NCBI GenBank assembly: GCA_039583875.1
Contig: CM077161.1
Span: 60,765,885 to 60,829,884, forward strand
Reading direction: 5' to 3'
DNA: 64,000 nt
From: Platanthera guangdongensis
Lineage: Eukaryota > Streptophyta > Magnoliopsida > Asparagales > Orchidaceae
Shown: positions 6,274 through 63,970 of the stretch, piece by piece
Numbering within the stretch: the stretch's first letter is position 1
How the letters are laid out: each line of letters starts with the position of its first letter
Translations under genes and position numbers: made by a program
Notes under the pieces: model-generated
What the model saw: the letters and a program-made list of their open reading frames with translations, nothing else
Database searches by the model: none
Told to the model about the DNA's origin: nothing

Positions 6274-6559
6274 GATAAAGCATGGCTCAAACCAGTCAAG
6301 GACCAGCTGGTTGAAATGGGGCTGCATTCCTTGTCCTAGTGAATTGAATGGGGGGTTGGGGAAGGGGAAGGATGAGCCCCAAAGTCTTCCCCCCCCCCAT
6401 TACTCCCTTCTCTTTCTCTCTCATTCCTTTGAAGATTTTCCTCTCTCCTACTCACCAAGCTGAAATTCTGACTCCTACCTAACCTAATGGCAGCCCACAT
6501 GTCCATTTCATCCACCAATACAAGGTTAGCCCAAGTGAATTGGGCTTGAGCTTGAGTTA

Positions 6560-7300: not shown

Positions 7301-7539
7301 GACCATGGTGGGGGTCTTGAACTCTTGGTAAAGCCTCATGGTCATCTTAAACTAGGGTTCAGAAATTTATTATTTGCAGACCATAGTGGTCTCACCTACA
7401 TTCCTAGGTTCACTTGGCCCTCTTGGGCTTCCTAGGTTTTGTCATGACCTAGTCATGACAGAACCACTCCTAGAGGTTTAGTTGTTTGAGGGATGTTACA
7501 AATCCCAATATATAAACAAAAAATTTCGTCCTCGAAATT

Positions 7540-12435: not shown

Positions 12436-15400
12436 TGTAAGACCCCCCCCCCCCCCCTTTTTCCTTAAAAAACCGGGTTCTTAGGCCGAGAACCGCCGCT
12501 TTGCGGTGACACCTTCACGCCCGAGAAGGTCATCACTACAAAACGCTGATCCTGCCGGCCAAATCGATCACAGCTGTAGCAAAATAATAAAGGCAAGTCC
12601 ACAGAAATCACATAAATAGTAAATAAACTCCACGATGGGAGTGTCCACAGATATAATGAAACACTAAAATCTTGGGCTCATGCCCAGTACATCAATGCCT
12701 CAGTATAAATCTCTCATCGCGGAAGCAAAACTAAAACAACTAATAGCGAATAGGACTCACAGTCCCTGCCGTCTGAACTCTGCTACTAGACTGCCCCATC
12801 TCCAAGCATGTCGACTTCCGGGGCTGCTCCTCCATGCTGGGCTCCACGGTCCCCTAAAATGATGTGGTTCGAAAACCATTAGTCTAAAAGATTAAGTACT
12901 ATCACCCCCCGCCCCTTCCCCATGGATCCTAGGAACCGATCGTGGAGAAGGAAAGGAGAGGACATGAAAGTGGAGAATAACAAATAAACAGATGGCGGCG
13001 GAACTAATCTAGCAGTTCTATAGTATATATGACAGCAAATAAGGTATGGAAAATCGAACAAGAAAGTAACCTCAACTTATATGAAAACACATAAGCCAAG
13101 CGATCTTTTGCAGGGATCCTATCATATAAAAAGTCTCATACCAATTTATACGATAGGGTGTCGGTTCTCTAGCAAGCATATATTTATAATACTGTATAAA
13201 AACCTTAACTTATAAGCGCGCTCGCACGAACTTATAAACCAAGGGGTCGTTTTGCAGGGCCTATTGTATAAAGCGTCTCATACCACTAATACAATAGGTG
13301 TCAGGTTATATTCAATGATTATTCTATGAAATACAAATATGCCATGATGTGAACATGCAAGTGCAACTCACCCACTCGACTTTGTGTACACAGACCTTTA
13401 GTTCCCCCTTTCTGGAGCTGAACCTCCCACGATACCTCTTTAGTGGCAAACAAAAGCAGGGGGTTGGGCCTTGACCACCTCTAAACCGGTAATTACACTA
13501 CCAGTCAGACCTATCGTACGCCTCAACGCTGGTGAACTAAGCGGAGCTCCTGCGTACTCTTTCGGGCTGGCGCACCGGACTTAATTGGTCAAGTGCTAAA
13601 CCACACTTGCTGAGTCAACGTATTGACGTTGGTGCATCGACTCACCAATACCGAAGACCCACCACCTTATTCTTATGCACATGCAACCTTATGTATCAGC
13701 TACCGAGCCAAAGTTCCCCGGACCATCCCGTCTGTCATAAACTATAACCGAGCCAAAGCTCATCGGGCCAACCTGCCCATCACAAACCATTACCGAGCCA
13801 AAGCTCGTCGGGCTAACCTGCCCATCACCAAAACCAATGGGCCTGCTGCTCGAGTTTCCCAACTTATCTCCCTGAGGCATCTAGGTGTGTGAAGGTGAGA
13901 CCCTAGATATACTAGTTACTCTTGCATTCCTGTTTTGCCTACAATTTAGGTTGAGCCCAGTACTGCTCAAGGTATTCCCCCTAAAGGGCTCTCGATGGCA
14001 CTAGGAGCTATGATGGGATACGCCCAAAGCTCCCTTTCATAAGGCACTTACTTTTATTGGTTGCTACTCATCTCTCAACCCTTAAATATTATACTGGATA
14101 TAACCATAGTGTATTTGACACTTCCTTTCCTACGAGGAAGACGAAGTTTCACCGACCCCAAGTACACTTAACACTAGCCAATCCAACACTCTATTCATCC
14201 CAACTTCCAACGATGAACTCATTTATATTCATCCAACCCAGCAAACAACTAACCCCAACTCATGTGCCAAAAATCATACTCCAACTTAATTTCTGCAGTT
14301 TTACTAAATGCAGATCACTTAAGATATATGATGTGTAACATGGGAGGTACTCAAAATATTCATCCAGTACCCCTATAATAATTATTAGAGGTCTGTCATG
14401 ACCTTTTTAGCCTAAAACCAGAATTTCATAATTTTCCCTATTTATCTGATATTTATTTAATTATACTAATCATCCAAAAATCCCAAGTTTGAACATGAAG
14501 TACCAATTTCAGACAAGTAAATGCTCTACCAAATTTATGATAAATTAAAAATGGTTATTAAACATAGAATCCAGAGTCTCGCCAATTTCCAGTAAGGTTA
14601 AGCCTATAAATCAATTTTTTGAAGATAACTATTTTTATTAATTTTAAGAGGCAAGTGCAGCAAAACTATTTCCAAAAATTCTGAGAAACTTTAAGGATGA
14701 TTGTAAGGACAAATAAATTCTCTAAGTCAAGTTTCATAATTTATTTGTAAGTAATGAGCTCTAAACAAATTATTGCACAATTTTTCAAGTTATTGAGCTT
14801 GTGAAGTAGGTACTGAAAATATGTATCCAAAAATTCTAATAAAATTCAAACATAGGCACTGAGGTCTAAAACCCCTTCTGCCAAATTTTCATGACATCCC
14901 AATGGGCAGTAGGATCATATTGGCCTAATGATTAATTAGGGTAAAACCATGAGTTACAAAGGAAGTGCTAATATTATTGATCCAAAATTTCCAATTAAAT
15001 TACCAAAGATTCAATCTATCCTTATGCTCATATTACACAAATTTTATTAGTGTTCAAGGAGTTTTACTAACCTAATCTAGCACTAAAATATTTGTGCCCT
15101 AAACTAGGGTTAGGTTTTTGAGGGGCCTACCCTTTCCCAAATCCCCTAATATTTTCACCAGAGGGTTTTAGTTACCCTATCACCCTCCCTACAAAATTTG
15201 AAGTTCATTAAAGGTTTGTTGGCCTCATGCCCTTCACAAGGCACAAAATCCCTTCCTTAGGGTTTGCCCTTAGATCTTAGGGCAAATCTATTCCAATCTA
15301 CCCCATCTTCTATGGGGAGGTGCTAAAAGCCATGCCAAGGCAGTGGCCCCAATTTCAACCTCTATTGAGGTGATTTGGCCACTCAAAACCCATAGTGCAC

Positions 15401-17762
15401 ATTTTGACCAAAATACCCTTTTTAGGGCAAGGCTAGGGTTGAATGATTTCAGTTCAAACCACCTCCAAATGAGATGAAATTTTAACCAGAGCTTTAAAAT
15501 AACCCCAAGCATCTCTCACCAAAATTTGGGTGAGTTTGGAGGTCATTTGTCACTAAATTAATTTACCCTTGATAAATTAAATAATTTCTAAAACTATAGA
15601 AACATTGTCCCCAAAAATTCTCATTTTTGGGCCGTACCTAGATAAAGACTAGGATGACTCCCTATCCAAATTTCAAGTCATTTGGACCAGAGATGAAGGG
15701 TGGGCATCCATTTTAATTTATGTCTAGCCCTAGGTATAGACCCCACCAAAATGAGTGTCCTGGTCAAACCAGGCACCCAAATTGGTTCAAACCAATTTTC
15801 AATTAAAGTAAACACACAGGGCTACATTGTGTTGACCATTTCCTCTGAATTAGTCTCTAGGTATTTGTAATAATTACAAACATTAAATACTTTATATGTG
15901 ACAGAAATGAAATAATAATTTCATGAAGCCTATAGTTTGATTTTATTCCTGCACGAATCTTGGCGCACTAGTGGACGACATCCCTTTTTCTTCAACCTCC
16001 AGCCAACATCCTGGATTGGATTTTCCTGGAGCATCTTCCACACGCTGCCGCCGGCAATCCGGCCACCTCCCCGGCCGGCCACCGCCACCACCACCTTCGT
16101 TGAGGTGGTGGTTGTTGCCAGGCGGCGGCACAGCCACCGGAGAGCCTTTTTTCGGCGATCCCGACAAGTGCAAAATAATGAGAAAAACAAGGAATTTTTC
16201 GAATTGGATCGGTCTCAATTAAGCCTGAACCTTGGCCCTAATGATTGCTATGAACTACCCATGGAAGACGGAGTGGAGGAGCACCTGTGTGGGTGGTTGT
16301 AGCCTTGCCGATCGCCGGATTGTCATGGTGGTGGTGGTGGTGGTCGGATTTCTGCAACAACATAGTGAAACTCCATGGCCCCTTCAAGTAATGGGTAGAA
16401 CTCAATCCCTGGAGTCCAGTCAAGCTTTTAAGAATGAAAATTGGGGTGTTAGGTGGGTGTAGGATGCATTGCCATTATTGGTCCTTAGTCAAAGTTTTCG
16501 GCCATGGTAGGTGGGGGATTAAGCATGGCTCAAACCAGTCAAGGACCAGATGGCTGAAATGGGGCTGCATTCCTTATCCTAGTGAATTGAATGGGGGGTT
16601 GGGGAAGGGGAAGGATGAGCCCCAAAGTCCCCCCCCCCATTACTCCCTTCCCTTTCTCTCTCTTTCCTTTGAAGATTTTTCTCTCTCCTACACACCAAGC
16701 TGAACTTTTGACTCATAACTAACCTAATGGCAGCCCACATGTCCATTTCACCCACCAATACAAGGTTAGCCCAAGTGAATTGGGCTTGAGCTTGAGTTAG
16801 CCCATTTGGGCTAGCTTGACCTAAACCTTGACTAGGGTTGACCTTGGTCAATTTGGTCTTTGAGGTTGCCCATAGTGGGTCCATGGTGACCCATTGGCCT
16901 CCCCTAAGGTCTAGGTTGGGTTGACTTGGCCCTTTGGAGGTCACTTGACCCTTAAACAGGGCACTTTGACCACTTTAGGGCTAGAGTTGACATGGGTCAA
17001 CTTAGCCTTTTTGGTTGACCCAAATGGGTCCTTGGTAACCCATTTGCCTCTCACTAGGGTTAGGAAGGTATGTGTGGGGTCCACTTGGCTAAGGGAACTT
17101 CAATTGGCCCTGTGCAGGTTAGTTTGACCCATTGTAGGTCAGTTTGACCCATTTAGGGTTAGAGTTGACTTTGGTCAACTTAACCTCTTGGATTGACCCC
17201 AATGAGTCCTAGGTGACCCATTAACCTTACTATATGGTTAGGAGGACATGAGTGGGATCCACTTGGCTAAGGGAAGGTCGGTTGACCCTATGTAGGTCAA
17301 GTTGACCCATTTAGGGTTTGAGTTGACTTTGGTCAACTTAACCACTTTGACAGCCCTCCATGGGTCCTTACTGACCCATTGACCCCACTTTAGGTATAGG
17401 AAGACCCTAGTAGGGTTATTTGGGCTTTACTAGGGCACACTGCCCTTAGTTAGGGCACCTTGCCCAATTTTGGCCTAGAGTGGTTCTAGGTCCACTTGGC
17501 CACCCTAGGTCGACTCCAATGGACCCTTAGGGTTCTAATGAATCTTACAATGGATTGATGAGACCATGATGAGGGTCTTGAAGTCTTAGCAAAGCCCCAT
17601 GGTCATCGTAAACTAGGGTTCAGAAATTTACTATTTGCAGACCATAGTGGTCTCACCTATATTCCTAGGTTCACTTGGCCCTCTTGGGCTTCCTAGGGTT
17701 TTGCCATGACCTAGTCATGACAAAACCACTCCTAGGGGTCTAGTTGTTTGAGTGATGTTACA
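12436..17762 (-). repeat. Gypsy-1 right LTR (5' LTR in element sense), 5.3 kb
   Basis: It runs from TGTAAGACC, beside the primer-binding site, to GATGTTACA. The section 14809-17762 matches the left LTR. The first 2.4 kb (12436-14808) has no partner in the window, so a nested insertion inside it cannot be excluded; TGTAACATGGG near 14335 could be one boundary. A run of about 17 C follows the start. No domains were found. It preserves the empty target of the solo LTR at 16517-16521. Confidence 0.85.
16820..17540. repeat. Degenerate tandem subrepeats in the Gypsy-1 right LTR
   Basis: This is the counterpart of the array at 6560-7300. Units of about 155-170 bp contain 'agggttagagttgacttt' and 'ggtcaacttaacc'. 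One unit has a small extra duplication of 'caggttagtttgacccatt' near 17115-17155. Confidence 0.72.
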
Positions 17763-34301: not shown

Positions 34302-35581
34302 TGATGCAGGCCAGCCCTTCGCGACACCAGAACAAGAAAATGCCTAAGAAGAGATCCTATGACAAACCTAAATTCCTATGGGGAATTTTAGCGAACATGT
34401 GGCGTGCGTACAAAAATCTAAATTTCGGCAGAGTTTTGTTTATAACTGTGCGATCTCACACGTGAGTATTTCCCAACGACATTTACACGAACATCACAAA
34501 TACATTAGCGTATCCTAACCATGCATCTAGCGTCACAACACATTCAATTTTCCATCCACAGGGAAGGCTATCCGGACTAAGATTGCAATTCGGAAATGAG
34601 TCCAAATACGCCCTCAAAACAAAACCCTACGAGGATATACCAAATCCTCTTGATCCGTTCGAAACCAAAGGTTGAACCAACCCCAGTTTGCAAGCGTCCA
34701 AAGGGACCTATCCTTACGGAAATCTTCGCAAAATTCGGAATTAAAAGCAATACAATTTCAGATTTATGAAGGCAACTAGATTCAATATTTAGGATAAAAT
34801 TTGTAAACCACTTGTCTCCAATAACTCACAAGATTAAGAGGAAAACTCACACAATATTTAGGGATAGAGATTCGTTACCCAAAACCGGAATTTCAAGAAG
34901 AGGAGAAACAAGATTTAGTTGAGGAATCGCTCTTCCACGGGCCACCGGAGTCGCACCGGATGATGAGAATCGAAACGCCTTCTTCGGAGTCACACCGGAG
35001 GAGGGAGAAGCATCGCCGGAGTGGCAAGAGGCAGCCACAAAGGGGCGGCAACAGCAGGCCGAGCGGATCCTGGAGGTCGGGATTTCGGCCAGGCCGAATA
35101 GGGGGCGGGCAGCCACCGAGAGAATAGGTTTAGGGTTTTTTAATTTCCTTCTTTTCAATACCTATTACAACCAAGTTTTGCCCTTATATAGGCAAGCGAA
35201 TCAAATTGTTTCATGCACATAAATTATGGCTAAACATAGGCCATAAACAACAAAAAATAAAATGCTAAACAATAAAAACAATGCTGAAATTAAAATGCAG
35301 AATTTAGACAACAAAATTATAAACTCATGCGTAAATGCGGCGGATATTTTGACGCGGCATTGGCGGAAGGTGTCGCGGCAAAATCCCAACCATTAAGCTT
35401 GCGACGACGGCGACGACGTTTGCGGCAACGGTCATTAATGACTACGAACATGTAGCGGCGACGGCGACGGCGGCGACGACGGTTGCGGCAATGGTCATCA
35501 ACATCCACGAACATGTAGCGACGGCGATCAAAATAGAAGTCCGTGTTGGCACGATCAAATGGCGAGGCATCCTCGCCATCA
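34302..35581 (-). repeat. Gag-only element, left LTR (3' LTR in element sense)
   Basis: It is 1280 bp, identical in length to the right copy and closely similar. GACGACGGC-type trinucleotide repeats lie at about 35398-35520. The element's long reading frame runs into this LTR as far as 35317. Confidence 0.93.
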
Positions 35582-38495: not shown

Positions 38496-39775
38496 TGATG
38501 CAGGCCACCCCTTCGCGACACCAGAACAAGAAAATGACTAAGATGAGATCCTATGACAAACCTAAATTCCTATGGGGAATTTTAGCGAACACGTGGCGTG
38601 CGTACAAAACTCTAAATTTCGGCAGAGTTTTGTTTATAACTGTGCGATCTCACACGTGAGTATTTCCCAACCACATTTACACGAACATCGCAAATACATT
38701 AGCGTATCCTAACCATGCATCTAGCATCACAACACATTCAATTTTCCATCCACAGGGAAGGCTATCCGGACTAAGATTGCAATTCGAAAATGAGTCCAAA
38801 TACGCCCTCAAAACAAAACCCTACGAGGATATACCAAATCCTCCTGATCCGTTCGAAACCAAAGGTTGAACCAACCCCGGTTTGCAAGCGTCAAAAGGGA
38901 CCTATCCTTACGGAAATCTTCGCAAAATTCGGAATTAAAAGCAATACAATTTCAGATTTATGAAGGCAACTAGATTCAATATTTAGGATAAAATTTGTAA
39001 ACCACTTCTCTCTAATAACTCACAAGATTAAGAGGAAAACTCACACAATATTTAGGGATAGAGATTTGTTACCCAAAACCGGAATTTCAAGAAGAGGAGA
39101 AACAAGATTTAGTGGAGAAATCGCTCTTCCACGGGCCACCGGAGTCGCACCGGATGATGAGAATCGAACCGCCTTCTTCGGAGTCACACCGGAGGAGGGA
39201 GAAGCGTCGCCGAAGTGGCAAGAGGCAGCCACAAAGGGGCGGCAACAGCAGGCCGAGCGGCTCCTGGAGGTCGGGATTTCGGTCAGGCCGAATAGGGGGC
39301 GGGCAGCCACCGAGAGAATAGGTTTAGGGTTTTTTAATTTCCTTCTTTTCAATACCTATTACAACAAAGTTTTGCCCTTATATAGGCAAGGAAATCAAAT
39401 TGTTTCATGCACATAAATTATGGCTAAACATAGGCCATAAACAACAAAAAATAAAATGCTAAACAATAAAAATAATGCTGAAATTAAAATGCAGAATTTA
39501 GACAACAAAATAATAAACTCATGCGTAAATGCGGCGGATATTTTGACGCGGCATTGGCGGAAGGTGTCGCGGCAAAATCCCAACCATTAAGCTTGCGACG
39601 ACGGCGACAACATTTGCGGCAACGGTCATTAATGACTACGAACATGTAGCGGCGATGGCGGCGACGGCGACGACGGTTTCGGCAACGGTCATCAACATCC
39701 ACGAACATGTAGCGATGGCGATCAAAATAGTAGTCCTTGTTGGCACGATCAAATGGCGGGGCATCCTCGCCATCA
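38496..39775 (-). repeat. Gag-only element, right LTR (5' LTR in element sense)
   Basis: It is 1280 bp, starts TGATGCAGGCC on the plus strand and ends CTCGCCATCA before GGAGG. It carries the same CGACGG-type repeats at 39595-39720 as the left copy. Confidence 0.93.
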
Positions 39776-51728: not shown

Positions 51729-53761
51729 TGTAACACCCCCTATCCGTCGCATAGTATATAGCAGTAGGTCCGGCCGGGGCCCGACGCCATATACCACAGA
51801 CAGACCGGGTGGTTACTTATGAAAACCATCCAACCAATCTCAACGTCCTACACAGAGCATTCTAGCAGAAGCAGTTATTAAAGGTTGTAAACAAGAACCC
51901 AGCAACGAAGCACGAATGTCCACTAGTACAAATTAGGAATGTTAAACAAAAATACCCAAAACCGGCCTTAAGGCCTTACAAAATGTTTCACTTGGATATT
52001 ACATGTTTTACAAACCACGGCACGCAGGCCGGTCATACATGAATAAAGCAGTAAACACTTCTACTTGGGCCTTCGAGGGCCAGCTTCGCAAAAAGGGCTT
52101 TAGCCCGCTATTGACCGCTTGGTCCAGCTGTACCTGCAAGCAACAAACCACCGCACGGTGGCAAAACAAGGCAACGGTCAGCAATGCTAACCAAATTATA
52201 ACGATCCCGCCCCCAACTCGGGGCGGCGATGCTCCTTCCCTGCATTTCATTAGCATAAGCGAGCAATTTATATAACCATAGCCATTTCATGACAGGCGTT
52301 GGCTCGCACGGCCACAAGCCCCGTGCACTTAGGGCACATTCTCGGTGAACCGGTCGATGTCACGTCAATTAAAGCCATTAACATTCCGGACTCACCACAG
52401 CCACTTAGACGGCCAAACCTATGAGCAATTTGTCTTCCTGGCCTGGGTCACGACAGTTTAAGCCATTGACCGCCGAAGACCCTCATCTATGCCAACAGTA
52501 AGTGCCACGTAACCTTAGGTCTCTTTAACCGAACGACATAAAGCGAGTACGGTTCCATCTAACCCGTGCTCACATCGCAACGACAATTTAAGCCATTTGC
52601 GCGGGTCAAACTTCCTCCGAGTCCCATTCTACCGCAAGTCACATAACCACGTTATGTTCAAGTTGGCTCTCAGGCCACCAAGTTGGCAAGATCTCGTATC
52701 CGCCCAGTTTTCCGGGTGCACCTTTGGGTTAGTCCCCAAGGCTCCCTGCTGCAATCTACCGCGTAGAAAACCCGAAAAATGACCAATAGCACGGAGTTTT
52801 CTCCGGCCTTATGCAATGCAACATCACCGATCCAGACTAACACGTCCGGGTAGGCTTTACACATCATGCCTATGTCCGTTCTCGCTTACGGACGCTAAAC
52901 AACGGGGACTTTACATATCTACCCGAAGGAATGCCTCCAACTCTCCGCAAACTCGCGAGAGCGGGCTTCCTATGCTAGGAAAGAGAGCTATTCGTGCTCA
53001 AGATGAGTATCGTTACCCTTGAGTTCCTCTTTGGTGCCATCGAAAAGTAATCGGATAGAAATCACCGCACTAGCGTTGCCTCCGTGGATCCGGAGTCGGC
53101 TTGCGATTCGGAGCTCCGAAGCTCCTCCAATGGCGGATCTAGCTCCTCTTCCACTCTTGGCTCTCCTCTTTCTCTAAGGACTTAGAGAGATGAAAAGTGA
53201 AGGAAAGTGATGGATTTCTAAGTCAACTCACGGGTATATCCTCTCAGGAACAACCCCCAGCCATTGGATCTCAACCTAAGAAAACGAACGGCTTTGATTC
53301 AGGGCTGAAATGCCCAATCTGGACCGAACACGGCCTGGAACACGCCCGTGTCCAGGGCCGTGTGCCGCATTCGCCGTCAAAATCGAATCTCCTGGAACCT
53401 CACACGGGTATCGAACACGCCCATGTTCGAGCTGACACGCCCGTGTTCCACTTCACACGGCCGTGTAGCCGGCCGTGTACCCCATGATTTTTCCCCATTT
53501 TCAACCCGAGCACTGCACGGGTTCTAGGACACGCCCGTGTCCGTGCCCGTGTCACATTGACACGCCTGGGACCCAGGCCGTGTACACGGGACACTTCGTC
53601 GAGGGAAGATTGACGACTTGATGACACGGCCTTGGACACGCCCGTGTCCTAGGCCGTGTGCCTTGACTCGACGATCGTCGAGTGAATCTCGACGACTCCC
53701 CGGGACGATCGTCGACACGGGTCGACACGCCCTACGACACACCCGTGTCGCAGGCCGTGTG
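51729..53761 (-). repeat. Gypsy-3 LTR, left piece
   Basis: It starts TGTAACACCCCCTATCCG and matches the Gypsy-2 LTRs base for base over most of its length. It stops at GTGTG (53757-53761), which is repeated at 62896-62900 beyond Gypsy-2. Palindromes of the ACACGCCCGTGT and CGACGATCGTCG type lie at 53330-53750. Open frames in this LTR are shared with the other copies and are not genes. Confidence 0.93.
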
Positions 53762-56068
53762 TGTAACACCCCCTATCCGTCGCATAGTATATAGCAGTAG
53801 GTCCGGCCGGGGCCCGACGTTATATACCACAGACAGACCGGGTGGTTACGTATGGAAACCATCCAACCAATCTCAACGTCCTACACAGAGCATTCTAGCG
53901 GAAGCAGTTTATAAGAGTTGTAAACCAGAACCCAACATAGGAGCATGAATGTCCACTAATACCAAAAGGAATGTTATACAAAAATACCCAAAACCGGCCT
54001 TAAGGCCTTACAAAGTGTTTCACTTGAAAATTACATGTTTTACGAACCACGGCACGCAGGCCGGTCATACATGAATAAAGCAGTAAACACTTCTACTTGG
54101 GCCTTCGAGGGCCAGCTTCGCAAAAAGGGCTTTAGCCCACTATTGACCGCTTGGTCCAGCTGCACCTGCAAGCAATAAACCACCGCACGGTGGCAAAACA
54201 AGGCAACGGTCAGCAATGCTGACCAAATTATAACGATCCCGCCCCCAACTCGGGGCGGCGATGCTCCTTCCCTGCATTTCATTAGCATAAGCGAGCAATG
54301 AATATATCCATAGCCATTTCAACACATACGTTGGCTCGCACGGCCACACGCCCCGTGCACTCAGGGCACATTCTCGGTGAACCGGTCGATGTCACGTCAA
54401 TTAAAGCCATTAACATTCCGGACTCACCACCGCCACTTAGACGGCCAAACCTATGAGCAATTTGTCTTCTTGGCATGGGTCACGTCAGTTTAAGCCATTG
54501 ACTGCCGAAGACTCACATCTATGCCAACGGCGAGTGCCACGTAACCTTAGGTCTCTCTAACCCGAACGACATAGAGCGGGTACGGTTCCATCTAACCCGT
54601 GCTCACATCGCAACGACAATTTAAGCCATTTGCGCGGGTCAAACTTTCGCCGAGTCCCATTCTATCGCAAGTCACATAACTCGGTTATGTACAAGTTGGC
54701 TCTCAGGCCACCAAGTTGGCAAGATCTCGTATCCGCCCAGTTTTCCGGGTGCACCTTTGGGTTAGTCCCCAAGGCTCCCTGCTGCAATCTACCGCGTAGA
54801 AAACCCGAAAACAACCAATAGCACGGAGTCTTCTCCAGCCTTATGCAATGCAACATCACCGATCCAGACTAAAATGTCCGGGTAGGCTTCACACATCATG
54901 CCTATGTCCGTTCTCGCATACGGACTCTAAACAACGGGGACTTCACATATCTACCCGAAGGAACGCCTCCAACTCTCCGCAAACTCGCGAGAGCGGGCTT
55001 CTTATGCTAGGAAAGAGAGCTATTCGTGCTCAAGATGAGGATCGTTACCCTTGAGTTCCTCTTTGGCGCCATTGAAAAGTAATCGGATGGAAATCACCGC
55101 ACTTGCGTTGCCTCCGTGGATCCGGAGTCGGCTCGCGATTCGGAGCTCTGAAGCTCCTCCAATGGCGGGATCTAGTTCTTCTTCCTCCAATGGCTCTCCT
55201 CTTTCTCCAAGGACTTGGAGAGATGATAAGGTAAGAAAGTGATGGATTTCTAAGTCAACTCACGGGTATATCCTCTCAGGAACAACCCCCAGCCGTTGGA
55301 TCTCAACCTAAGGAAACGAACGGCTTTGATTCGGGGCTGAAATGCCCAATCTGGACCGAACACGGCCTGGCACACGCCCGTGTCCAGGGCCGTGTGCCGC
55401 ATTCGCCGTCAAAATCGAATCTCCTGGACCCTCACACGGGTATCGAACACGCCCGTGTTCGAGCTGACACGCCCGTGTTCCACCTGACACGGCCGTGAGG
55501 CCGACCGTGTACCCCATGATTTTTCCCCTTTTCCAACCCGAGCACTGCACGGGTCCTAGGACACGCCCGTGTCCTTGCCCGTGTCACCTTGACACGCCTG
55601 GACCCCAGGCCGTGTACACGGTTTCGAGATTTCGTCGCGTGGAGATCGACGACTGGATGACACGGCCATGGACACGCCCGTGTCCTAGGCCGTGTGCCTT
55701 GTCTCGACGATCGTCGAGCAAATCTCGACGACTCCCCGGGACGATCATCGACACGGGTCGACACGCCCTGCGACACGCCCGTGTCGCAGGCTGTGTGCCC
55801 ATTCTCGACGAATCGTCGAGTATATCTCGACGATTTCACGGCTAAGTGTCGACACGGGTCGACACGCCCTGCGACACGCCCGTGTCGCAGGCCGTGTGCC
55901 CATTCTCAGCGAATCGTCGAGAAAATCTCGACGACTTCGCGGCTAAGTGTCGGCACACGCTTGACATGCCCTGGGACACGCCCGTGTCCCAGGCCGTGTG
56001 CCTTCAGCCAGAAACCAAAACTGGCCTAAAATGTCCCCCTTCACTTCTGTGAGTTTCGGGGCGTTACA
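53762..56068 (-). repeat. Gypsy-2 left LTR (3' LTR in element sense), complete
   Basis: It is 2307 bp, from TGTAACACCCCC to TTTCGGGGCGTTACA. The section 55320-56068, which is U3 in element sense, has no counterpart in the right LTR. It contains at least ten palindromic ACACGCCCGTGT/ACACGGCCGTGT motifs and several CGACGATCGTCG motifs. Confidence 0.95.
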
Positions 56069-56082
56069 ACTCTCCCCCTCTT
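56069..56082 (-). other. Gypsy-2 polypurine tract
   Basis: In element sense it reads AAGAGGGGGAGAGT immediately before the LTR start TGTAACGCCCC. Gypsy-3 has an identical tract at 63165-63178. Confidence 0.88.
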
Positions 56083-56103
56083 AAAAGAATTTCGTCCACG
56101 AAA

Positions 56104-56904
56104 TTATATATAAAGGAAAGACATGTATAAACTAAAATTTGTACCTGAGCGGAACAACTCCGGATACTCGTTAGGCATAGTCTGCTCTCGCTCCCAAGAG
56201 AGCTCCTCACGACCGCAATTGTCCCACCGGACCTTGACCATCCTGATCTCTTTATTGCGTAGCCGCTTGACCTCCGAGTCCTTGATCCGCACTGGCTTGA
56301 CTTTTGTCGATAGCCCACTATCCATCGGCACTTGATCAACCGCGATCACTTGCGTAGGCTCTTGCACCACATTCCGAAGCATCGAAATATGGAATGCATC
56401 ATGTAAACCACTTAGCTCCACTGAAAGCTTCAACCGATAGGCTGCTTCTCCAACTCGCTCCAAAACCTCAAACGGTCCAAGGTACCTCGGGCTTAGCTTT
56501 TTCAATCGTCGCACCCGCGAGACACCCTTGAACGGCTTGATCTTTAAGTATACATAATCTCCCACAGCGAACTCCACGTTCCTGTGCTTGGCATTATAGT
56601 ACTTTGCTTGCCGGTCCTGAGCGATAGGCAACCTCTCCCGAATGGTTCTCAGCAAAGAAGTAGCATCCTCCATTTCCGATCGCTTATATAACTTTGACTC
56701 ACCCGTTTCTAACCGAGACAACGGCGTGCGACATCTTCTACCGTATAGGGCCTCGAAGGGCGCCATCTGAATACTCGCTTGGTAGCTGTTATTGTATGCG
56801 AACTCCACCAAATAAAGGTGGTCTTCCCCAGTGCTTTCCAAAATCCAAGACACGCATGCAAAGCATGTCTTCCATGGTTCTATTGACCTTCTCTGTCTGC
56901 CCAT
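56104..56904 (-). pseudogene. Gypsy-2 integrase C-terminus with chromodomain-like tail
   Basis: An open frame of 266 codons. It contains the end of the IN core ('VEFAYNNSYQASIQMAPFEA', 'YGRRCRTPL'), 'RNVEFAVGDYVYLKI', the GPY/F module ('LSPRYLGPFEVLERV', 'AAYRLKL', 'LHDAFHISMLR') and the chromodomain-like tail ('VKRLRNKEIRMVKVRWDNC', 'ELSWEREQTM'). It overlaps the upstream IN frame by about 115 bp in another frame, which marks a frameshift near 56850. This is the best preserved part of the element, almost identical to the Gypsy-3 copy. Confidence 0.9.
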
Positions 56905-57596
56905 CTGTTTGCGGATGGGTGGCTGTGCTGAATTTCAACTTTGTTCCCAACATCTGTTGCACCAGCCTCCAATCATTGGACGTGAACCGCTCATCTCGGT
57001 CACTCACGATGCTGCGGGGCACACCATGAAGCCGTACTATATTATCCACATACAGCTTTGCCAGCTTCTCCACCGGATCATCCTTCCTATGCGGAATAAA
57101 ATGCGACACCTTCGTTAATCGATCCACGACCACCCAAATGGCGTCGTTCCCCTCTTTGCGACCTTGGCAAACCGTGCACAAAGTCCATAGAGATGTCGTC
57201 AAATTTCCACTCCGGAATAGGCAAGGACTTAAGAAATCCTCCCGGCTTTTGGCACTCCGCCTTTACCAAGGCACGGGTTTGGCACTTCGCTACGTATAGC
57301 GCCAAATCCTTTTTCAAACCCGGCCACCAACACAGTTTCTTCACATCACGGTACAACTTCGTGCTCCCCGGGTGAATCGAGTACTTGGTATGGTGTGCCT
57401 CGTACAACAACTCCACCCGCAAATTGCCCACACTTGGGACGCACAAACGACCGTCTCTCCGAAGCAATTCATCCTCCACGACGAATTGGGAATTTGACCC
57501 ACCCAGAGCCTCTACCATGAACTGCTTCAGCACTTGATTGCTTGTCCACACAAACGATCCCCAACGCCTCCAACTCTCGCACCAACCGCTCATCAT
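56789..57596 (-). pseudogene. Gypsy-2 integrase zinc domain and catalytic core
   Basis: The frame 57087-57596 holds the zinc-binding region, with 'AHHTKYSIHPGS' for the His pair. The second half reads 'AKCQTRALVKAEC', in which the CX2C pair is broken. It also holds 'ISMDFVHGLP' with the first catalytic Asp. After a frameshift at about 57140-57200, the frame 56789-57202 carries 'RSIVSDRDERFTSNDW' (Asp68 of that segment) and 'PQTDGQTEKVNRTME' (Glu104), separated by 35 residues. The triad is present, but the zinc domain and frame are damaged. Confidence 0.88.
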
Positions 57597-57991
57597 GCAC
57601 CGATAGACAATTGGCTCGAGCTGGGGCTTGGCGACTCACCGCGTCAGCAACCGCATTCCCTTTATCAGGCGCGTAGTGGATCTTGAATGTATAGTCTCCC
57701 AAGAACTGCATCCATCTACGCTGCCGTAAATTCGGATCCTTCTGATCAATCAGATACTTCACGCTCTTGTGACCGGCGTAGAGATCCATTTTCACACCGT
57801 ACACAATTATGCCTCCATAGCTTCAAGGCAACACTCACGGCCACTAACATCAGGTCATGGACCGGATAGTTCCTCTCGTGCACTTTTGGCTGTCTCGCGC
57901 CATACGCTATTACACGTTCGTGTTGCAGTGGTACGCAACCCAACTCGCTGCGCGAAGTATCGCTATTAAATCTCATACCCTGCGGTCCCAC
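57597..57991 (-). pseudogene. Gypsy-2 RNase H
   Basis: Recognisable pieces are 'ERVIAYGARQPKVHERNYP', 'LMLVAVSVALKLWRH', 'DPNLRQRRWMQFLGDY', 'HYAPDKGNAVADAVSR'. The usual YTDHKSL block reads 'LYAGHKSVKYL', so the Asp is replaced. Two frames are used, with a shift near 57790. Confidence 0.85.
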
Positions 57992-58873
57992 TCGGCGAAC
58001 ACAGCACAGGCGCCGTGGTCAACCGACACTTCAATTCCTCAAAAGCTCGCGCGCACTCCAGCGTCCAAAAGAACTTATGCTCGTTCCTCGTCAAAGTAGT
58101 GAGAGGTAACGCTATCCGCGAGAAGTTCTCCACGAAGCGCCTATAATAGCCGGCAAGCCCCAGAAAACTCTGGACTTCCGCTTTCGTAGCAAGCTCAGGC
58201 CACTCTCGTATCGCAACAATCTTCGACGGATCCACTGCAATACCTTCCTTACTCATTACAAGACCGAGGGCACCTCTGAGGGTGACCAAACTCGCACTTC
58301 GAGAACTTGGTATATGACTGATTCTTCCTTATCATCTCAAAACCAAAAGAAGATGCTTGAAGTGATCTTCCTTACTCTGCGAGTACACCAGAATATCGTC
58401 GACGAAGACGATCACAAAATGGTCCAAGTACTCCCTGAAAGTCTTGTTCATCAAATCCATGAACACTGACGGCGTATTTGTCAGCCCAAATGGCCTGACC
58501 CTAAACTCGTAGCGCCCGTGTCATGTACTGAACGTTATCTTAGGGATATCACTCTCCCTTAGCTACTTTAGAGTACGGCGTTGGCCCGACCAACTGATCA
58601 CAATGGTCATCGATCCTTGGGATTGGGTACTTGTTCTTTGCTGTTACCTTGTTGAGCTCCCGATAATTAATACATAGCCCCAAGCTTCCGTTCTTCTTCT
58701 TACGAAAGAGGGTCGGTGCGCTCCAAGGCGAAGGACTTGGACGCACATACCCTTGCTCCAACAACTTTTAGAAGTTGCACCTTCAGCTCCGCCATTTCCG
58801 TAGGCGCTAGCCGACAAGGAGAGCGTGACACAGGCCTTGCACCTGGTACAAGCTCAAACATGGAATCTATCTC
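57992..58873 (-). pseudogene. Gypsy-2 reverse transcriptase
   Basis: The entry at about 58800-58873 is 'FELVPGARPVSRSP', then '[16 protein letters not shown]', '[20 protein letters not shown]'. The following palm section (DLRSGYHQ region) is missing or scrambled near 58550-58580. The sequence resumes with '[10 protein letters not shown]', a stop, '[20 protein letters not shown]' and the catalytic block '[16 protein letters not shown]' (about 58378-58425), intact. The thumb is '[20 protein letters not shown]', '[20 protein letters not shown]'. Stops and shifts near 58290-58350 and 58520. Confidence 0.88.
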
Positions 58874-59420
58874 CTATTGAGGCGGGGCTCCAGGAAGATC
58901 CCTAGGGAACACATTAGGGTACTTCGATACCACAGAAATACAATCCAATGTGGGCTTCGGCTTTGCAACCTCCACTAGTGTAAAGAACAATTCTGCTCCG
59001 GCACGAACCGCCTTCACCACCTGAAGAGCAAACGCCAACATCTTGCTCGACCTCTTCGAGCCCGTAAAGGTCGTCTCACGACTTGCTCCTGGCTTGACTT
59101 CCTTGCTACCGCATCTAAATTGGCTTGCTGCTCCGAGAGCCAGTCCATACCAAATATAACGTCGAACTCCTGATTCCCAATCCAAAACTAAGCGCAACAA
59201 CGTCTACCCGCGCACAATGAGCACCATTGACTATAACGCATCCAATTTGTCTTTTACCATCGAAGGAGGTACTCCGACACACAATATAATTCCTAATAAA
59301 GGAATACGAAGCTCCCTAAACGAACCGTGCTCTCGCAGATAAAGTAAAGTCGCAACAAAGCTTAACACAGATAGTTCTAAGCTCACATGCATAAGGGTGA
59401 CAAGTATTTAAAGCAAAACT
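58874..59420 (-). pseudogene. Gypsy-2 aspartic protease, active site destroyed
   Basis: The block expected to read F-D-S-G-A-S reads 'FV', stop, 'GASYSFIRNYI'. GAT has become GTT (59319-59321) and a TAG stop stands at 59316-59318. Further on 'EFDVIFGMDWLSEQQANLD' marks the protease C-terminal region, in a second frame. The link to RT is 'CISVVSKYPNVFPRDLPGAP'. The catalytic Asp is lost, so this protease could not function. Confidence 0.83.
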
Positions 59421-59424
59421 ATCT

Positions 59425-60324
59425 TTAAACCATACCTGTCCTCGTGACAGCGTGCTTCCACCAGGGCTTTAGGCACTCACGAGCGTAATGCCCCGGCTCG
59501 CCACAGCTGAAACATGTGCCCGGGGTCTGACCCGTAGTCGCCCCAGAAGCACTAGAAAGAGCTTGACCCGAAGTCCAACGCTTCTTATACCATTTACGAT
59601 ATGCAGACTTTGAGGTGTTCGGCACTTTGAATGTCGTTTCCTTTGCACTAACATCCTTGACTGCACCTGACATAGCTTCCTTACCCTTCCGAGCACCATT
59701 CCAACAGTCTCGGGCAAAGTGCCCTTTCTTTCCACAAGTATAACAAGTGTAAGTAGCTTTATTAGTCGATTTCATAACCCCTTTCTCCAGCATTCTGCCG
59801 GATGCAGCTCTTATGGGGTTTGTATAGTTCGATACCATAGTCGCTGGCATCGGGAGGGTCTTCCTCAACTCTGCCTCCAATGATCTAGCTGATTCCACCA
59901 AGGCTCGGAATCCCAATAACTTTGGTCCTAGCAGTAGGACTCGTAACTCGGCGCGTAGGCCATTATAGAATCTATCGACTGTAGCTTGCTCATTATCCGA
60001 CTCAAAGCATGGGTAGCGACTTATCATAAGAAATGCTTGCAAATATTCCTCAACTGTGTGCGCTCCGTGCACTAAATCCATATTCAGCTGCTGCTCCAAT
60101 GGTCTACCAAAGGTCATCTGCTGCATCGCGCCCACCGGCGTTGAAGCCACAACAGGGGCGCAGGGTTGTACATTTCCTCCTAGCTGTACACCCGTCACAG
60201 TGAACACCGCTTCTACGATCCTTCTAACGGTTTCATACGAAGGAGGAGGCTCAAACACCTCACCGAGTGCACTATGCTCCTCAGAAACCGGACATTCTGG
60301 CTGTCCAGCACCGCTTCCGGTCAC
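59425..60324 (-). pseudogene. Gypsy-2 Gag, open frame but shortened
   Basis: 299 codons are open. The frame begins at GTG 60324 directly after a TAG, and the first in-frame ATG is residue 67, so the true N-terminus is lost. The N-terminal half of the capsid domain (with the 'WW' region) is missing between residues 65 and 75. The C-terminal half is present ('TVEEYLQAFLMISRYPCFES', 'RFYNGLRAELRVLL'). Two perfect CX2CX4HX4C knuckles follow at Cys194-Cys207 and Cys271-Cys284. Tekay-like Gags usually have one, so the second is notable. The absence of stops over 0.9 kb is unusual beside the damaged pol. Confidence 0.85.
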
Positions 60325-60529
60325 CTATAGTGGTACAAAATACCGTCAAGCGACCAAATAAAATTGCGAACAGCAATTATAGGAACACGCAGGTTCCTCA
60401 AACACGAGTATTTTCATTCCTAAGTGGACATTCATGGGTTCTTTTACCGTTATAACGATGATGCACACAATGTGCTCACCACCCCTTAAAAAGAATTCGT
60501 CCACGAATTCAGCTTAAGTCCGACCAAAA

Positions 60530-60549
60530 CCAGTAGTCTGATACCAAAT
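60530..60549 (-). other. Gypsy-2 primer-binding site
   Basis: In element sense ATTTGGTATCAGACTACTGG follows the LTR end GGTGTTACA. TTGGTATCAGA pairs with the 3' end of tRNA-iMet. Confidence 0.88.
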
Positions 60550-62108
60550 TGTAACACCCCCTATCCGTCGCATAGTATATAGCAGTAGGTCCGGCCGGGG
60601 CCCGACGCCATATACCACAGACAGACCGGGTGGTTACGTATGGAAACCATCGAACCAATCTCAACGTCCTACACAGAGCATTCTAGCGGAAGCAGTTTAT
60701 AAGAGTTGTAAACCAGAACCCAACATAGGAGCATGAATGTCCACTAATACCAAAAGGAATGTTATACAAAAATACCCAAAACCGGCCTTAAGGCCTTACA
60801 AAGTGTTTCACTTGAAAATTACATGTTTTACGAACCACGGCACGCAGGCCGGTCATACATGAATAAAGCAGTAAACACTTCTACTTGGGCCTTCGAGGGC
60901 CAGCTTCGCAAAAAGGGCTTTAGCCCACTATTGACCGCTTGGTCCAGCTGCACCTGCAAGCAATAAACCACCGCACGGTGGCAAAACAAGGCAACGGTCA
61001 GCAATGCTGACCAAATTATAACGATCCCGCCCCCAACTCGGGGCGGCGATGCTCCTTCCCTGCATTTCATTAGCATAAGCGAGCAATGAATATATCCATA
61101 GCCATTTCAACACAGACGTTGCCTCACACGGCCACACGCCCCGTGCACTTAGGGCACATTCTCGGTGATCCAGTCGATGTCACGTCAATTAAAGCCATTA
61201 ACATTCCGGACTCACCACCGCCACTTAGACGGCCAAACCTATGAGCAATTTGTCTTCTTGGCATGGGTCACGTCAGTTTAAGCCATTGACCGCCGAAGAC
61301 TCACATCTATGCCAACGGCGAGTGCTACGTAACCTTAGGTCTCTCTAACCCGAACGACATAGAGCGGGTACGGTTCCATCTAACCCGTGCTCACATCGCA
61401 ACGACAATTTAAGCCATTTGCGCGGGTCAAACTTTCATCGAGTCCCATTCTCTCGCAAGTCACATAACTCGGTTATGTTCAAGTTGGCTCTCAGGCCACC
61501 AAGTTGGCAAGATCTCGTATCCGCCCAGTTTTCCGGGTGTACCTTTGGGTTAGTCCCCAAGGCTCCCTGCTGCAATCTACCGCGTAGAAAACCCGAAAAC
61601 AACCAATAGCACGGAGTCTTCTCCGACCTTATGCAATGCAACATCACCGATCCAGACTAAAATGTCTGGGTAGGCTTCACACATCATGCCTATGTCCGTT
61701 CTCGCATACGGACTCTAAACAACGGGGACTTCACATATCTACCCGAAGGAACGCCTCCAACTCTCCGCAAACTCGCGAGAGCGGGCTTCTTATGCTAGGA
61801 AAGAGAGCTATTCATGCTCAAGATGAGGATCGTTACCCTTGAGTTCCTCTTTGGCACCATTGAAAAGTAATCGGATGGAAATCACCGCACTTGCGTTGCC
61901 TCCGTGGATCCGGAGTCGGCTCGCGATTCGGAGCTCTGAAGCTCCTCCAATGGCGGGATCTAGTTCTTCTTCCTCCAATGGCTCTCCTCTTTCTCCAAGG
62001 ACTTGGAGAGATGATAAGGTAAGAAAGTGATGGATTTCTAAGTCAACTCACGGGTATATCCTCTCAGGAACAACCCCCAGCCGTTGGATCTCAACCTAAG
62101 GAAACGAA
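60550..62108 (-). repeat. Gypsy-2 right LTR, retained part
   Basis: It matches 53762-55318 of the left LTR with few differences. It breaks off after 'ctaaggaaacgaa' at 62108, where the left LTR continues 'cggctttgattcgggg'. The remaining 750 bp of LTR, which is U3 in element sense, is absent. Confidence 0.94.
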
Positions 62109-62358
62109 TTGGTGATGAGCGTTGAAATAACTCCATAGTTAAGCGTGCTCGGGCTGGAGAAGTACTAGGATGGGTGACCTCCCGGGAAGTCCCCGTGTTG
62201 TCCGCTTAACGGGAGAATTTCACTCATCAAAGGGAGGCTGTGGCCACCAACAACCCGCCTTTGGAGGGAGAGGGGTTGGGGTGCTTGGGCTGCAGCCCGG
62301 TAACGGTCCGCCGGAGGCCTAGTGGTGTTGATCCACGAAAGGCAAAGGGGACGTTACA
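62109..62358 (+). repeat. 5S-derived unit A
   Basis: The 5S homology spans about 62129-62201: 'GTTAAGCGTGCTCGGGC' (box A) and 'GGATGGGTGACCTCCCGGGA' (box C). Its flanks resemble B and C ('aaagggaggctgtggccacc', 'gggctgcagcccggta') but its end differs ('gtaacggtccgccggaggcc') before GACGTTACA. It is the most diverged of the three. It joins B tail to tail through the palindrome centred on GTGCAC at about 62368. Confidence 0.82.
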
Positions 62359-62377
62359 ATAAAAGTGCACTTTTTAT

Positions 62378-62636
62378 TGTAACACCCCTAGCCGATCCAA
62401 CGTGACAGCGTCACGGCTCTGCTCTAGGCGATGCTACCGGGCTGCAGCCCAAGCACCCCAACCCCTCTCCCTCCACGGGCGGGTTGTTGGTGGCCACAGC
62501 CTCCCTTTGATGAGGCAAACTCGATAGTCAAGCCCGCACCACGGGGACTTCCCAGGAGGTCACCCATCCCAGTACTACTCCAGCCCGAGCATGCTTAACT
62601 ATGGAGTTCTTTCAACTCTCATCACCAATTGAGCTG
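62378..62636 (-). repeat. 5S-derived unit B (inverted)
   Basis: The 5S homology is on the minus strand at 62536-62609, with box C and box A preserved (box A has one change, GCATGC). It is the inverted partner of unit C with no spacer. It starts on the plus strand with TGTAACACCCCTAG. Confidence 0.88.
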
Positions 62637-62895
62637 CAGGTCAATTGGTGATGAGAGTTGAAAGAACTCCATAGTTAAGCGTGCTCGGGCTGGAGTAGTA
62701 CTGGGATGGGTGACCTCCTGGGAAGTCCCCGTGGTGCGGGCTTGACTATCGAGTTTGCCTCATCAAAGGGAGGCTGTGGCCACCAACAACCCGCCCGTGG
62801 AGGGAGAGGGGTTGGGGTGCTTGGGCTGCAGCCCGGTAGCATCGCCTAGAGCGGAGCCGTGACGCTGTCACGTTGGATCGGCTAGGGGTGTTACA
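62637..62895 (+). repeat. 5S-derived unit C
   Basis: The 5S homology is at 62664-62737: AGTTAAGCGTGCTCGGGC (box A), GAGTAGTAC (intermediate element) and GGATGGGTGACCTCCTGGGA (box C). All three polymerase III control boxes look functional. The first ~45 nt of mature 5S RNA is absent. It ends GGGGTGTTACA directly before the GTGTG duplication. Confidence 0.9.
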
Positions 62896-63164
62896 GTGTG
62901 CCCATACTCGACGAATCGTCGAGTATAACTCGACGACTTCACGACTAAGTGTCGACACGGGTCGACACGCCCTGCGACACGCCCGTGTCACAGGCCGTGT
63001 GCCCACTCTCGACGAATCGTCGAGACAATCTCGACGCCTTCGCGGCTAACTGTCGACACGGCTCGACACGCCCTGGGACACGTCCCAGGCCGTGTGCCTG
63101 CTGCCAGAACCCAAACTGGCCTAAAACGTCCCCCTTTCGCTCCTTTGAGTTTCGGGGCATTACA
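62896..63164 (-). repeat. Gypsy-3 LTR, right piece
   Basis: It begins with the second GTGTG and continues 'cccatactcgacgaatcgtc' exactly where the left piece stopped. It ends TTTCGGGGCATTACA; the terminal CGTTACA of the family is CATTACA here. Confidence 0.93.
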
Positions 63165-63199: not shown

Positions 63200-63970
63200 T
63201 TACATAAAGGAAAGACATGTACAAAAACAAAATTTTGTACCTGAGCGGAACAACTCCGGATACTCGTCAAGCATAGTCTGCTCTCGCTCCCAAGAGAGCT
63301 CCTCACGGCCGCAATTGTCCCACCGGACCTTGACCATCCTGATCTCTTTATTGCGTAGCCGCTTGACCTCCGAGTCTTCGATCCGCACGGGCTTGACCTT
63401 TGTCGTTAGCCCACTATCCACCGGCACTTGATCGACCGCGATCACTTGCGTAGGCTCTTGCACCGCCTTCCGGAGCACCGAGATGTGGAATACATCGTGT
63501 AAACCACTAAGCTCCACTGAAAGCTTCAACCGATAGGCTGCTTCACCAACTCGCTCAAGAACCTCAAACGTTCCAAGGTACCTCGGGCTTAGCTTTTTCA
63601 ATCATCGCACCCGCGAGACACCCTTGAACGGCCTGATCTTTAAGTATACATAATCGCCCACAGCGAACTCCACGTTCCTGTGCTTGGCATTATAGTACTT
63701 TGCTTGCCGGTCCTGAGCGATAAGCAACCTCTCCCGAATGGTTCTCACCAAAGAAGTAGCATCCTCCACTTCCGATCGCTTATACAACTTTGACTCACCC
63801 GTTTCTAACCAAGACAACGGCGTGCGACATCTTCTACCATATAGGGCCTCGAAGGGCACCATCTGAATACTTGCTTGGTAGCTGTTGTTGTATGCGAACT
63901 CCACCAAATAAAGGTGGTCTTCCCACTGCTTTCCAAAATCTAAGACACACATGCGAAGCATGTCTTCCAT
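63200..63970 (-). pseudogene. Gypsy-3 integrase C-terminus with chromodomain-like tail
   Basis: Nearly identical in sequence to 56104-56870 of Gypsy-2. It contains 'VEFAYNNSYQASIQMVPFEA', 'NVEFAVGDYVYLKIRPFKG', the GPY/F module and 'VKRLRNKEIRMVKVRW'. One lesion is visible: at 63601-63603 an Arg codon CGA, still present in Gypsy-2, is TGA. Upstream pol continues beyond the window edge. Unlike Gypsy-2, no frameshift is seen across the IN core end here. Confidence 0.9.

What the first reader, a model, noticed from the sequence alone, without database searches (positions are those of the whole stretch)
60550..62900. Chimeric retrotransposon LTR whose U3 end is an array of 5S rRNA-derived units
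Seen: the right LTR of Gypsy-2 matches the left LTR until 62108. It is then replaced by three 5S-derived units that end TGTTACA at 62895, directly next to GTGTG, the same 5 bp that precede the left LTR. So the 5S array forms the integrated end of the element. In element sense this is the U3 of the 5' LTR. Inference: either a template switch onto 5S-derived RNA before integration, or insertion of a Cassandra-like LTR array and then deletion between GGGGTGTTACA and the LTR's own GGGGCGTTACA. Either way, polymerase III promoters now sit where the polymerase II promoter of the element should be. I know of no described LTR of this make-up.
Basis: partly seen in the sequence, partly recalled or inferred. 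Interest (0 to 1): 0.88.

Follow-up and report, generated by a model that had tools for sequence, protein, structure and literature searches.

The report
5S-derived hitchhiker capping a retrotransposon
A plant retrotransposon here ends in copies of a small 5S-RNA-derived sequence instead of its own end, and similar joins elsewhere in the same genome suggest that this small sequence attaches itself to retrotransposon DNA copies before they insert.

Summary
Gypsy-2 (53762-62895, minus strand) is nested in a related LTR with a 5-bp target duplication, GTGTG. Its right (5') LTR matches the left one to 62108; three 5S-derived units then form the integrated end at 62895.

The units are a dispersed repeat of this 4.25-Gb genome (4091 first-look candidates, 40 scored). 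A unit U has one LTR-like tail (GGGGYGTTACA) and a head (GCAGCTCAATTGG). Units alternate in palindromic arrays; 8 of 12 arrays tested have exact 5-bp TSDs.

U heads are also joined to LTR ends. In 6 of 6 chimeras tested, the window included, one 5-bp TSD brackets Gypsy-type DNA plus U. For three the expected 5-mer was in the notebook before the far end was fetched, for a fourth already read. L015's join keeps bases that integration normally removes. So these chimeras form at the cDNA stage.

Best reading: U is a single-ended hitchhiker made insertable by a partner, another U or a Gypsy cDNA. Transcription, enzyme and way of joining are inferred. The window's own join is single-copy among scored candidates and lacks about 747 bp of U3.

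The parts
51729..53761 (-). First part of the outer (host) Gypsy-type LTR into which Gypsy-2 inserted
   Evidence: 93.7% to Gypsy-2 left LTR; collinear with 62901-63164 once the insertion is left out
53757..53761 (.). Target site duplication GTGTG, left copy
53762..56068 (-). Gypsy-2 left LTR (3' LTR in element sense), TGTAACACCCCC...GGGGCGTTACA
56069..56087 (-). Polypurine tract side (read as its complement next to the LTR end)
   Evidence: sequence reading
56104..60324 (-). Internal region with pieces of integrase, RNase H and gag zinc-knuckle domains in broken frames
   Evidence: Pfam hits in 5 of the 7 minus-strand ORF pieces given; rve and RT_RNaseH lie below their curated cut-offs
60537..60546 (-). 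Primer binding site TGGTATCAGA, 3 bases from the LTR (complementary to the end of initiator tRNA-Met; recalled)
   Evidence: sequence reading
60550..62108 (-). Gypsy-2 right LTR (5' LTR in element sense), cut short within U3
   Evidence: 21 mismatches in 1559 to the left LTR, no gaps
62107..62358 (+). 5S-derived unit A; AA at 62107-62108 is shared with the LTR
   Evidence: Rfam 5S 29.6 bits (below gathering); 90.3% to B' over 196 bases; box A and box C
62359..62377 (.). Tail-to-tail link c2, ATAAAAGTGCACTTTTTAT
   Evidence: same kind of link 41 times in 37 loci
62378..62630 (-). 5S-derived unit B
   Evidence: 99.2% inverted copy of B'; Rfam 5S 32.6 bits; box A and box C
62631..62642 (.). Head-to-head link c1, GAGCTGCAGGTC
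   Evidence: same kind of link 58 times in 37 loci
62643..62895 (+). 5S-derived unit B'; its end GGGGTGTTACA is the integrated end of Gypsy-2
   Evidence: Rfam 5S 32.5 bits; box A and box C; next base starts GTGTG
62896..62900 (.). Target site duplication GTGTG, right copy
62901..63164 (-). Second part of the outer LTR, followed by that element's own internal region to the window end
   Evidence: SH3_Tf2-1 in 63200-63601 and a chromodomain hit below its cut-off

Best explanation
The window holds one product of a recurrent process. A 5S-derived unit U (about 270 bp) has a tail, GGGGYGTTACA, that looks like the end of a Gypsy LTR, and a head, GCAGCTCAATTGG, that does not. The head of a U copy becomes joined to the free end of another DNA copy: another U, giving palindromic arrays with outward tails, or a Gypsy-type cDNA at its U3 or U5 end. 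The joined molecule is then inserted like an LTR element, with a 5-bp TSD, using the U tail on one side and the partner's end on the other. In the window the partner was a Gypsy-2 cDNA and the cap was A-B-B'. Shown: TSDs round whole chimeras, the recurrent join point on U, LTR-adjacent bases kept at a join, several LTR families involved. Inferred: that U is a Pol III RNA copied in Gypsy particles, that the join is end-to-end template switching by reverse transcriptase rather than ligation, and that a Gypsy integrase inserts it. The loss of about 747 bp at the window's join came from an early switch inside U3 or from a later deletion.
For: One 5-bp TSD round LTR-type DNA plus U in 6 of 6 chimeras tested: window GTGTG, L028 GTACG, L015 GTCCG, L020 AAATT, L043 GACAC, L060 GAGAA. 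Flanks of L015, L020 and L043 were noted before their far ends were fetched; that of L060 was read before one search was read. L015's join keeps AT, the two bases between LTR and PPT in the same element. Exact LTR-end/U-head pattern 80 times, reversed control 0; in 20 read, 11 continue into LTRs of my set, on U3 or U5 side. Arrays with outward tails have exact TSDs in 8 of 12. Head-head 58 and tail-tail 41 of 121 unit junctions. In L028 a U head is joined to a copied stretch of primer tRNA (tRNA name recalled).
Against: No RNA, cDNA or enzyme evidence. The window's join is atypical: LTR cut at position 1559, U seven bases short of its usual head; it is single-copy among scored candidates. L009 and L017 lack a TSD, L010 matches 4 of 5, L037 needs a lost T; L047, left out of that table because its left end is three bases short, shows none by eye. 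L043's target is rich in GACAC (19 in 1801 bases) and its far end was found only one repeat further left than first looked for. L020's join has lost bases. 9 of 20 joins read were not clearly LTR: 3 short matches, 1 weak, 1 weakly U-like, 4 none. Some spacers recur, so some chimeras may have been copied on. L038, L045 and L046 were not tested, nor whether a lone head can be an inserted end.
Confidence: 0.75

Rival explanations
1. At the window only: an array inserted later into an intact right LTR of Gypsy-2, and a deletion between GGGGTGTTACA and the LTR's own GGGGCGTTACA removed the rest.
For: The join is single-copy among the candidates scored; the two ends share GTTACA and four Gs; arrays do insert into Gypsy-type LTRs elsewhere (L013).
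Against: Needs a separate insertion and an exact deletion to the LTR end, plus loss of U's head on the other side; five other chimeras with shared TSDs need no such step.
Confidence: 0.12
2. U is the LTR of an ordinary Cassandra-type TRIM; arrays and chimeras are its rearranged remains.
For: Box A and box C match the Cassandra motifs (PMC7215508 passages). TG...CA ends and 5-bp TSDs are present. Tandem Cassandra arrays are described (PMC7215508 passages).
Against: Published arrays are LTR-internal-LTR in one direction; here 58 of 121 unit junctions are head-head, 41 tail-tail, 2 head-tail and 20 other. The B-type tail followed within 8 bases by TGGTATCAG occurs once, in a chimera; exact pattern only, A-type tail not tested.
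Confidence: 0.12
3. The chimeras form before integration, but by ligation (end joining) of finished linear cDNAs, not by template switching.
For: Joins lie at cDNA ends, with 1-3 extra bases or short overlaps; end joining gives the same.
Against: The copied tRNA stretch in L028 and the U-tail-PBS join of L052 look like events during reverse transcription. Neither excludes ligation.
Confidence: 0.3
4. U arrays are a foldback or TIR-type DNA transposon.
For: Long inverted repeats and fixed-length TSDs.
Against: The same U tail is the end of insertions whose other end is a Gypsy-type LTR; tails resemble LTR ends.
Confidence: 0.04
5. Assembly error at the palindromes.
For: Long palindromes are hard to assemble (general knowledge).
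Against: The same unit order and TSDs recur at many places; joins to LTRs recur 80 times in an exact pattern that also takes in U-U joins.
Confidence: 0.03

Closest known systems
Cassandra (TRIM with 5S-derived promoter in its LTRs)
   Same: 5S-derived core with box A and box C, TG...CA ends, 5-bp TSD at most arrays tested, no coding capacity, multi-unit arrays
   Different: No direct LTR pair, PBS or PPT found for U; units alternate head-head and tail-tail; U caps Gypsy-type elements
Helenus and Ajax (TRIMp3; tRNA- or 5S-derived sequence in LTRs; PMC10886601 abstract and passages)
   Same: Small-RNA-derived promoter motifs in an LTR-type element with 5-bp TSDs in plant Helenus and in Ajax; here 5S-type and tRNA-type units share arrays
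   Different: Helenus and Ajax keep two LTRs with PBS and PPT
SINE3 (5S-derived SINEs)
   Same: Short, 5S-derived, non-coding
   Different: Fixed 5-bp TSD and LTR-like ends instead of LINE-type insertion (SINE features recalled)
LTR-mediated retroposition and chimeric retrotransposons by template switching (seen only in search listings, and passages; details recalled)
   Same: Foreign RNA copies fused to LTR-element cDNA before integration
   Different: As recalled, foreign sequence lies between the LTRs; here it lies outside the LTR and supplies the inserted end

Membership tests
Cassandra | 5S-derived core with box A and box C | tested here: met
   All three window units match both published motifs (motifs)
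Cassandra | LTR-type ends TG...CA and 5-bp TSD | tested here: met
   Exact TSD in 8 of 12 arrays with outward tails
Cassandra | Two LTRs in direct orientation round an internal domain | tested here: not met
   2 of 121 unit junctions head-tail, neither with the expected internal domain read; 99 head-head or tail-tail
Cassandra | Methionine PBS next to the LTR | tested here: not met
   Exact pattern B-type tail + PBS: 1 hit in the genome, a chimera with another element; A-type tail not tested
Cassandra | PPT before the 3' LTR | not tested
   No search made
Cassandra | 5S core within 25-75% of the LTR (PMC10853983 section 14) | tested here: inconclusive
   No LTR boundary on the head side of U can be set
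SINE3 | 5S-derived head | tested here: met
   Sub-gathering Rfam 5S matches, box motifs
SINE3 | LINE-type insertion with TSDs of variable length | tested here: not met
   Fixed 5-bp TSDs; definition recalled; tail not compared with LINEs
TRIMp3 (Helenus, Ajax) | Two LTRs, PBS and PPT with a small-RNA promoter in the LTR | tested here: not met
   As for Cassandra; PPT not tested
Ty3/Gypsy (Gypsy-2) | LTR pair, tRNA PBS, PPT, gag and pol domains with integrase | tested here: met
   LTRs, PBS and PPT read; gag zinc knuckle, integrase pieces, weak RNase H. Reverse transcriptase core not found in the ORF pieces scanned; domain order of a Gypsy fits
TIR or foldback DNA transposon | A transposase source with the same ends | not tested
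   No search made

The most novel reading that the evidence does not exclude
A new class of mobile element with only one integrase-competent end. A small-RNA-derived unit without LTR pair, PBS or PPT of its own is copied inside Gypsy particles and joined head-on to another copy of itself or to its helper's cDNA, which supplies the missing end; the hitchhiker thereby consumes and deforms helper copies as it spreads.
Probability: 0.42. Interest if true: 0.92.

Novelty: new variant of a known kind. Interest (0 to 1): 0.8.

Why it matters
Small-RNA-derived elements are thought to move either as SINEs, by LINE enzymes, or as TRIMs with the full LTR machinery. Units that need only one LTR-like end, and double or borrow the other, would be a further route. 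They leave a genomic record of cDNA-stage events (unprocessed ends, copied primer tRNA) that are otherwise studied biochemically. They also place 5S-type promoter motifs on the ends of Gypsy-type elements and make long palindromes; in L013 the DNA between two arrays seems to have been inverted.

Tried and rejected
Considered and dropped. (a) Chance: a 23-base word of the unit is found 3 times in the window, 0 times in 100 shuffles; the reversed junction pattern gave 0 hits. (b) A misread TSD in GTG-rich DNA: collinearity of the outer LTR settles it. (c) The LTR cut at position 1559 as the RNA start: none of the TATA-like words searched for lies upstream of it; dropped. (d) Rfam microRNA hits: all below gathering; those at 62596-62677 lie on the head-head palindrome, the MIR5084 hit at 62269-62467 over the tail-tail link. 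(e) The tRNA-like stretch of L028: Rfam did not report it as tRNA, and ARAGORN found no gene in three of 40 listed relatives, which are themselves fusions of such a stretch with LTR starts; the name initiator tRNA-Met is recalled. (f) Unit C: Rfam did not report it as a tRNA either; only box motifs support it.

Paper searches found no description of such chimeras (listings with the starts of abstracts, '5S rRNA' + gypsy + 'chimeric LTR', 0 papers). Genome-wide counts of tail-tail links (first asked) and head-head links did not complete.

Full report
OBSERVATION. The window is 60,765,885-60,829,884 of contig C15 of an unnamed 4.25-Gb genome; I read it as plant DNA. Gypsy-2 lies on the minus strand. 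Its left (3') LTR is 53762-56068; a PPT and a PBS can be read next to the LTRs, and pieces of gag, RNase H and integrase in broken frames (no reverse transcriptase core in the pieces scanned). Its right (5') LTR matches the left one from 60550 to 62108 with 21 mismatches in 1559 bases and no gaps and then stops. The next 787 bases are three 5S-derived units, A(+), B(-) and B'(+), linked tail to tail by a 19-bp palindrome and head to head by 12 bp. B and B' are 99.2% inverted copies; A is 90.3% like B' over 196 bases. The array ends TGTTACA at 62895 and GTGTG follows.

GTGTG is a target site duplication. What precedes 53762 and what follows 62900 are two parts of one LTR of a related outer element. 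Without the insertion they align to Gypsy-2's LTR and beyond over 2545 columns at 93.1%, and both GTGTG copies align to the same five bases.

THE UNITS ELSEWHERE. The array is a dispersed repeat: 4091 first-look candidates, 40 scored, 195 matches. I fetched 20 of about 39 places grouped by eye from that list; one search returned 20 more loci. Both sets are the best matches to a query, the first to a three-unit query, so long arrays are favoured. In 37 loci (L009-L048 without L029, L035 and L044; L001-L008 left out as the window or overlaps; L033 and L034 look like copies of one duplicated place) there are 121 unit-unit junctions: 58 head-head, 41 tail-tail, 2 head-tail, 20 deleted or other. 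A unit U thus has a tail ending GGGGYGTTACA, like Gypsy LTR ends, and a head beginning GCAGCTCAATTGGTGATGAG. Arrays with tails outward behave like LTR-type insertions: 8 of 12 have an exact 5-bp TSD (L011, L012, L014, L016, L021, L023, L024, L026; L012 carries an insert). L010 matches 4 of 5, L037 fits if one T was lost, L009 and L017 do not fit. L047, whose left end is three bases short, was not in that table and shows none by eye. L013, also outside the table, is best read as two insertions with TSDs GAACC and CTGAC and an inversion between them. A sister unit, C, has a tRNA-type box B in L022 (a similar sequence stands in L017).

CHIMERAS ELSEWHERE. L028 reads GTACG, a three-unit array, about 60 bases that I recognise as the primer tRNA (recalled), a Gypsy-2-type LTR of 2.3 kb at 92%, GTACG. 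In L015, L038, L045 and L046 an LTR end is followed by a few bases and a U head; L043 has a longer spacer and L020 a shortened join. I wrote down the right-hand flanks of five of them before fetching any far end. The far LTR starts of L015, L020 and L043 proved to be preceded by GTCCG, AAATT and GACAC, the same as the flank of the array. For L043 the first stretch fetched held another LTR of the tandem, not the end; the end was one repeat further left, and the target is rich in GACAC, so this is the weakest case. L060, taken from a second search, has GAGAA on both sides: right flank read, far end. With the window that is 6 of 6 tested; L038, L045 and L046 were not tested.

In L015 the join reads GTTACA-AT-TT-GCAGCTC. 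The other LTR of the same element shows that AT are the two bases between LTR and PPT. Integration normally removes such bases (recalled), so U was joined to an unprocessed cDNA end, which a later insertion beside a finished element would not give. L038 and L046 also show AT, and L045 shows AC as Gypsy-2 has next to its PPT, though the PPTs of those three were not read. In L060 the join (GTTACA-A-GCAGCTC) is at the U5 end of a 3' LTR.

HOW COMMON. The exact pattern GTTACA, 0-8 bases, GCAGCTCAATTGGTGATGAG has 80 hits, the reversed control 0. In 31 of the 80 the spacer contains AAAA, as expected of head-tail U-U joins; 49 do not. I read 20 of those 49. 6 continue into the U3 side of an LTR of my set (L055, L056, L058, L059, L069, L072) and 5 into the U5 side (L054, L060, L061, L063, L073). 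3 have only a 27-base LTR match (L067, L070, L071), 1 a weak one (L057), 1 is weakly U-like (L062), 4 match nothing in my set (L064, L065, L066, L068). Some spacers recur, so some chimeras may have been copied further rather than made anew.

MECHANISM. The simplest account is that U has one insertable end and joins by its head to another cDNA end. Two units joined head to head have two insertable ends; so has a U joined to a Gypsy cDNA. Template switching at strand ends would explain the extra bases, the GC shared at U-U joins, and the tRNA stretch of L028. Ligation remains possible. L052, where a 61-base U tail runs into AAG, a PBS and the internal region of another family, hints that U copies can be primed by the same tRNA. 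There is no RNA or enzyme evidence here, and whether a lone head can be an inserted end was not tested.

THE WINDOW LOCUS. Its join is not typical: the LTR is cut at position 1559 (about 747 bases of U3 lost), U starts at AATTGG, seven bases short of the usual head, and AA is shared. It is single-copy among the 40 of 874 candidates scored. Either the switch came early, inside U3, or a typical chimera later lost about 750 bases; in both cases the chimera predates integration.

COMPARISON. All three units match published Cassandra box A and box C (PMC7215508 passages). Cassandra has a Met PBS, a PPT and a 5S core inside direct LTRs (PMC10853983: outline, passages, sections 12 and 14). Here the exact PBS test of the B-type tail gave one chimeric hit, and the units alternate. 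Helenus and Ajax also have PBS and PPT (PMC10886601 passages). I do not file U as Cassandra; it may descend from one. I found no paper describing such chimeras (searches: listings; three papers seen in part); the library lacks most subscription journals.

PROMOTERS. A and B' read away from Gypsy-2; only B reads toward its body. Whether any is transcribed is unknown.

VERDICT. Observation confirmed; joining before integration well supported as a recurrent process; Cassandra identity not supported; the way of joining inferred.

Noticed in passing
window 834-1508: Ladder of self-matches at multiples of about 68 bp: a tandem repeat.
   Followed up: no
window 2470-7500 and 14808-17762: A repeat pair (about 91-92%) whose left copy is interrupted near 4183-6274 by a sequence 79-80% like the inverted Gypsy-2 LTR: probably another nested LTR.
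   Followed up: no
window 34302-35581 and 38496-39775: Direct repeat pair of 1280 bp at 97%, probably the LTRs of another element.
   Followed up: no
L077, L078, L079: In three of 40 listed genome matches to the tRNA stretch of L028 (1280 first-look candidates), a long tRNA-like stretch stands directly before an LTR start: recurrent tRNA-LTR fusions.
   Followed up: partly
L022 4866-5090, L017 3812-4050: Unit C: tRNA-type box motifs (L022) in arrays with 5S units, with similar tail words; Rfam did not report a tRNA in L022.
   Followed up: partly
L013 3732-6257: Two arrays whose flanks match as reverse complements (GAACC/GGTTC, GTCAG/CTGAC): the DNA between them seems inverted.
   Followed up: partly
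L052: Antisense LTR start, then 61 bases of U tail, then PBS and internal region of the L015 family: a further kind of join.
   Followed up: partly
L032 1557-1590: A unit head followed by TTGTAACAGCCC, like an LTR start: possibly one more chimera.
   Followed up: no
L033 and L034: Two places on contig C5 with the same array and mirrored flanks: likely a duplicated segment.
   Followed up: no
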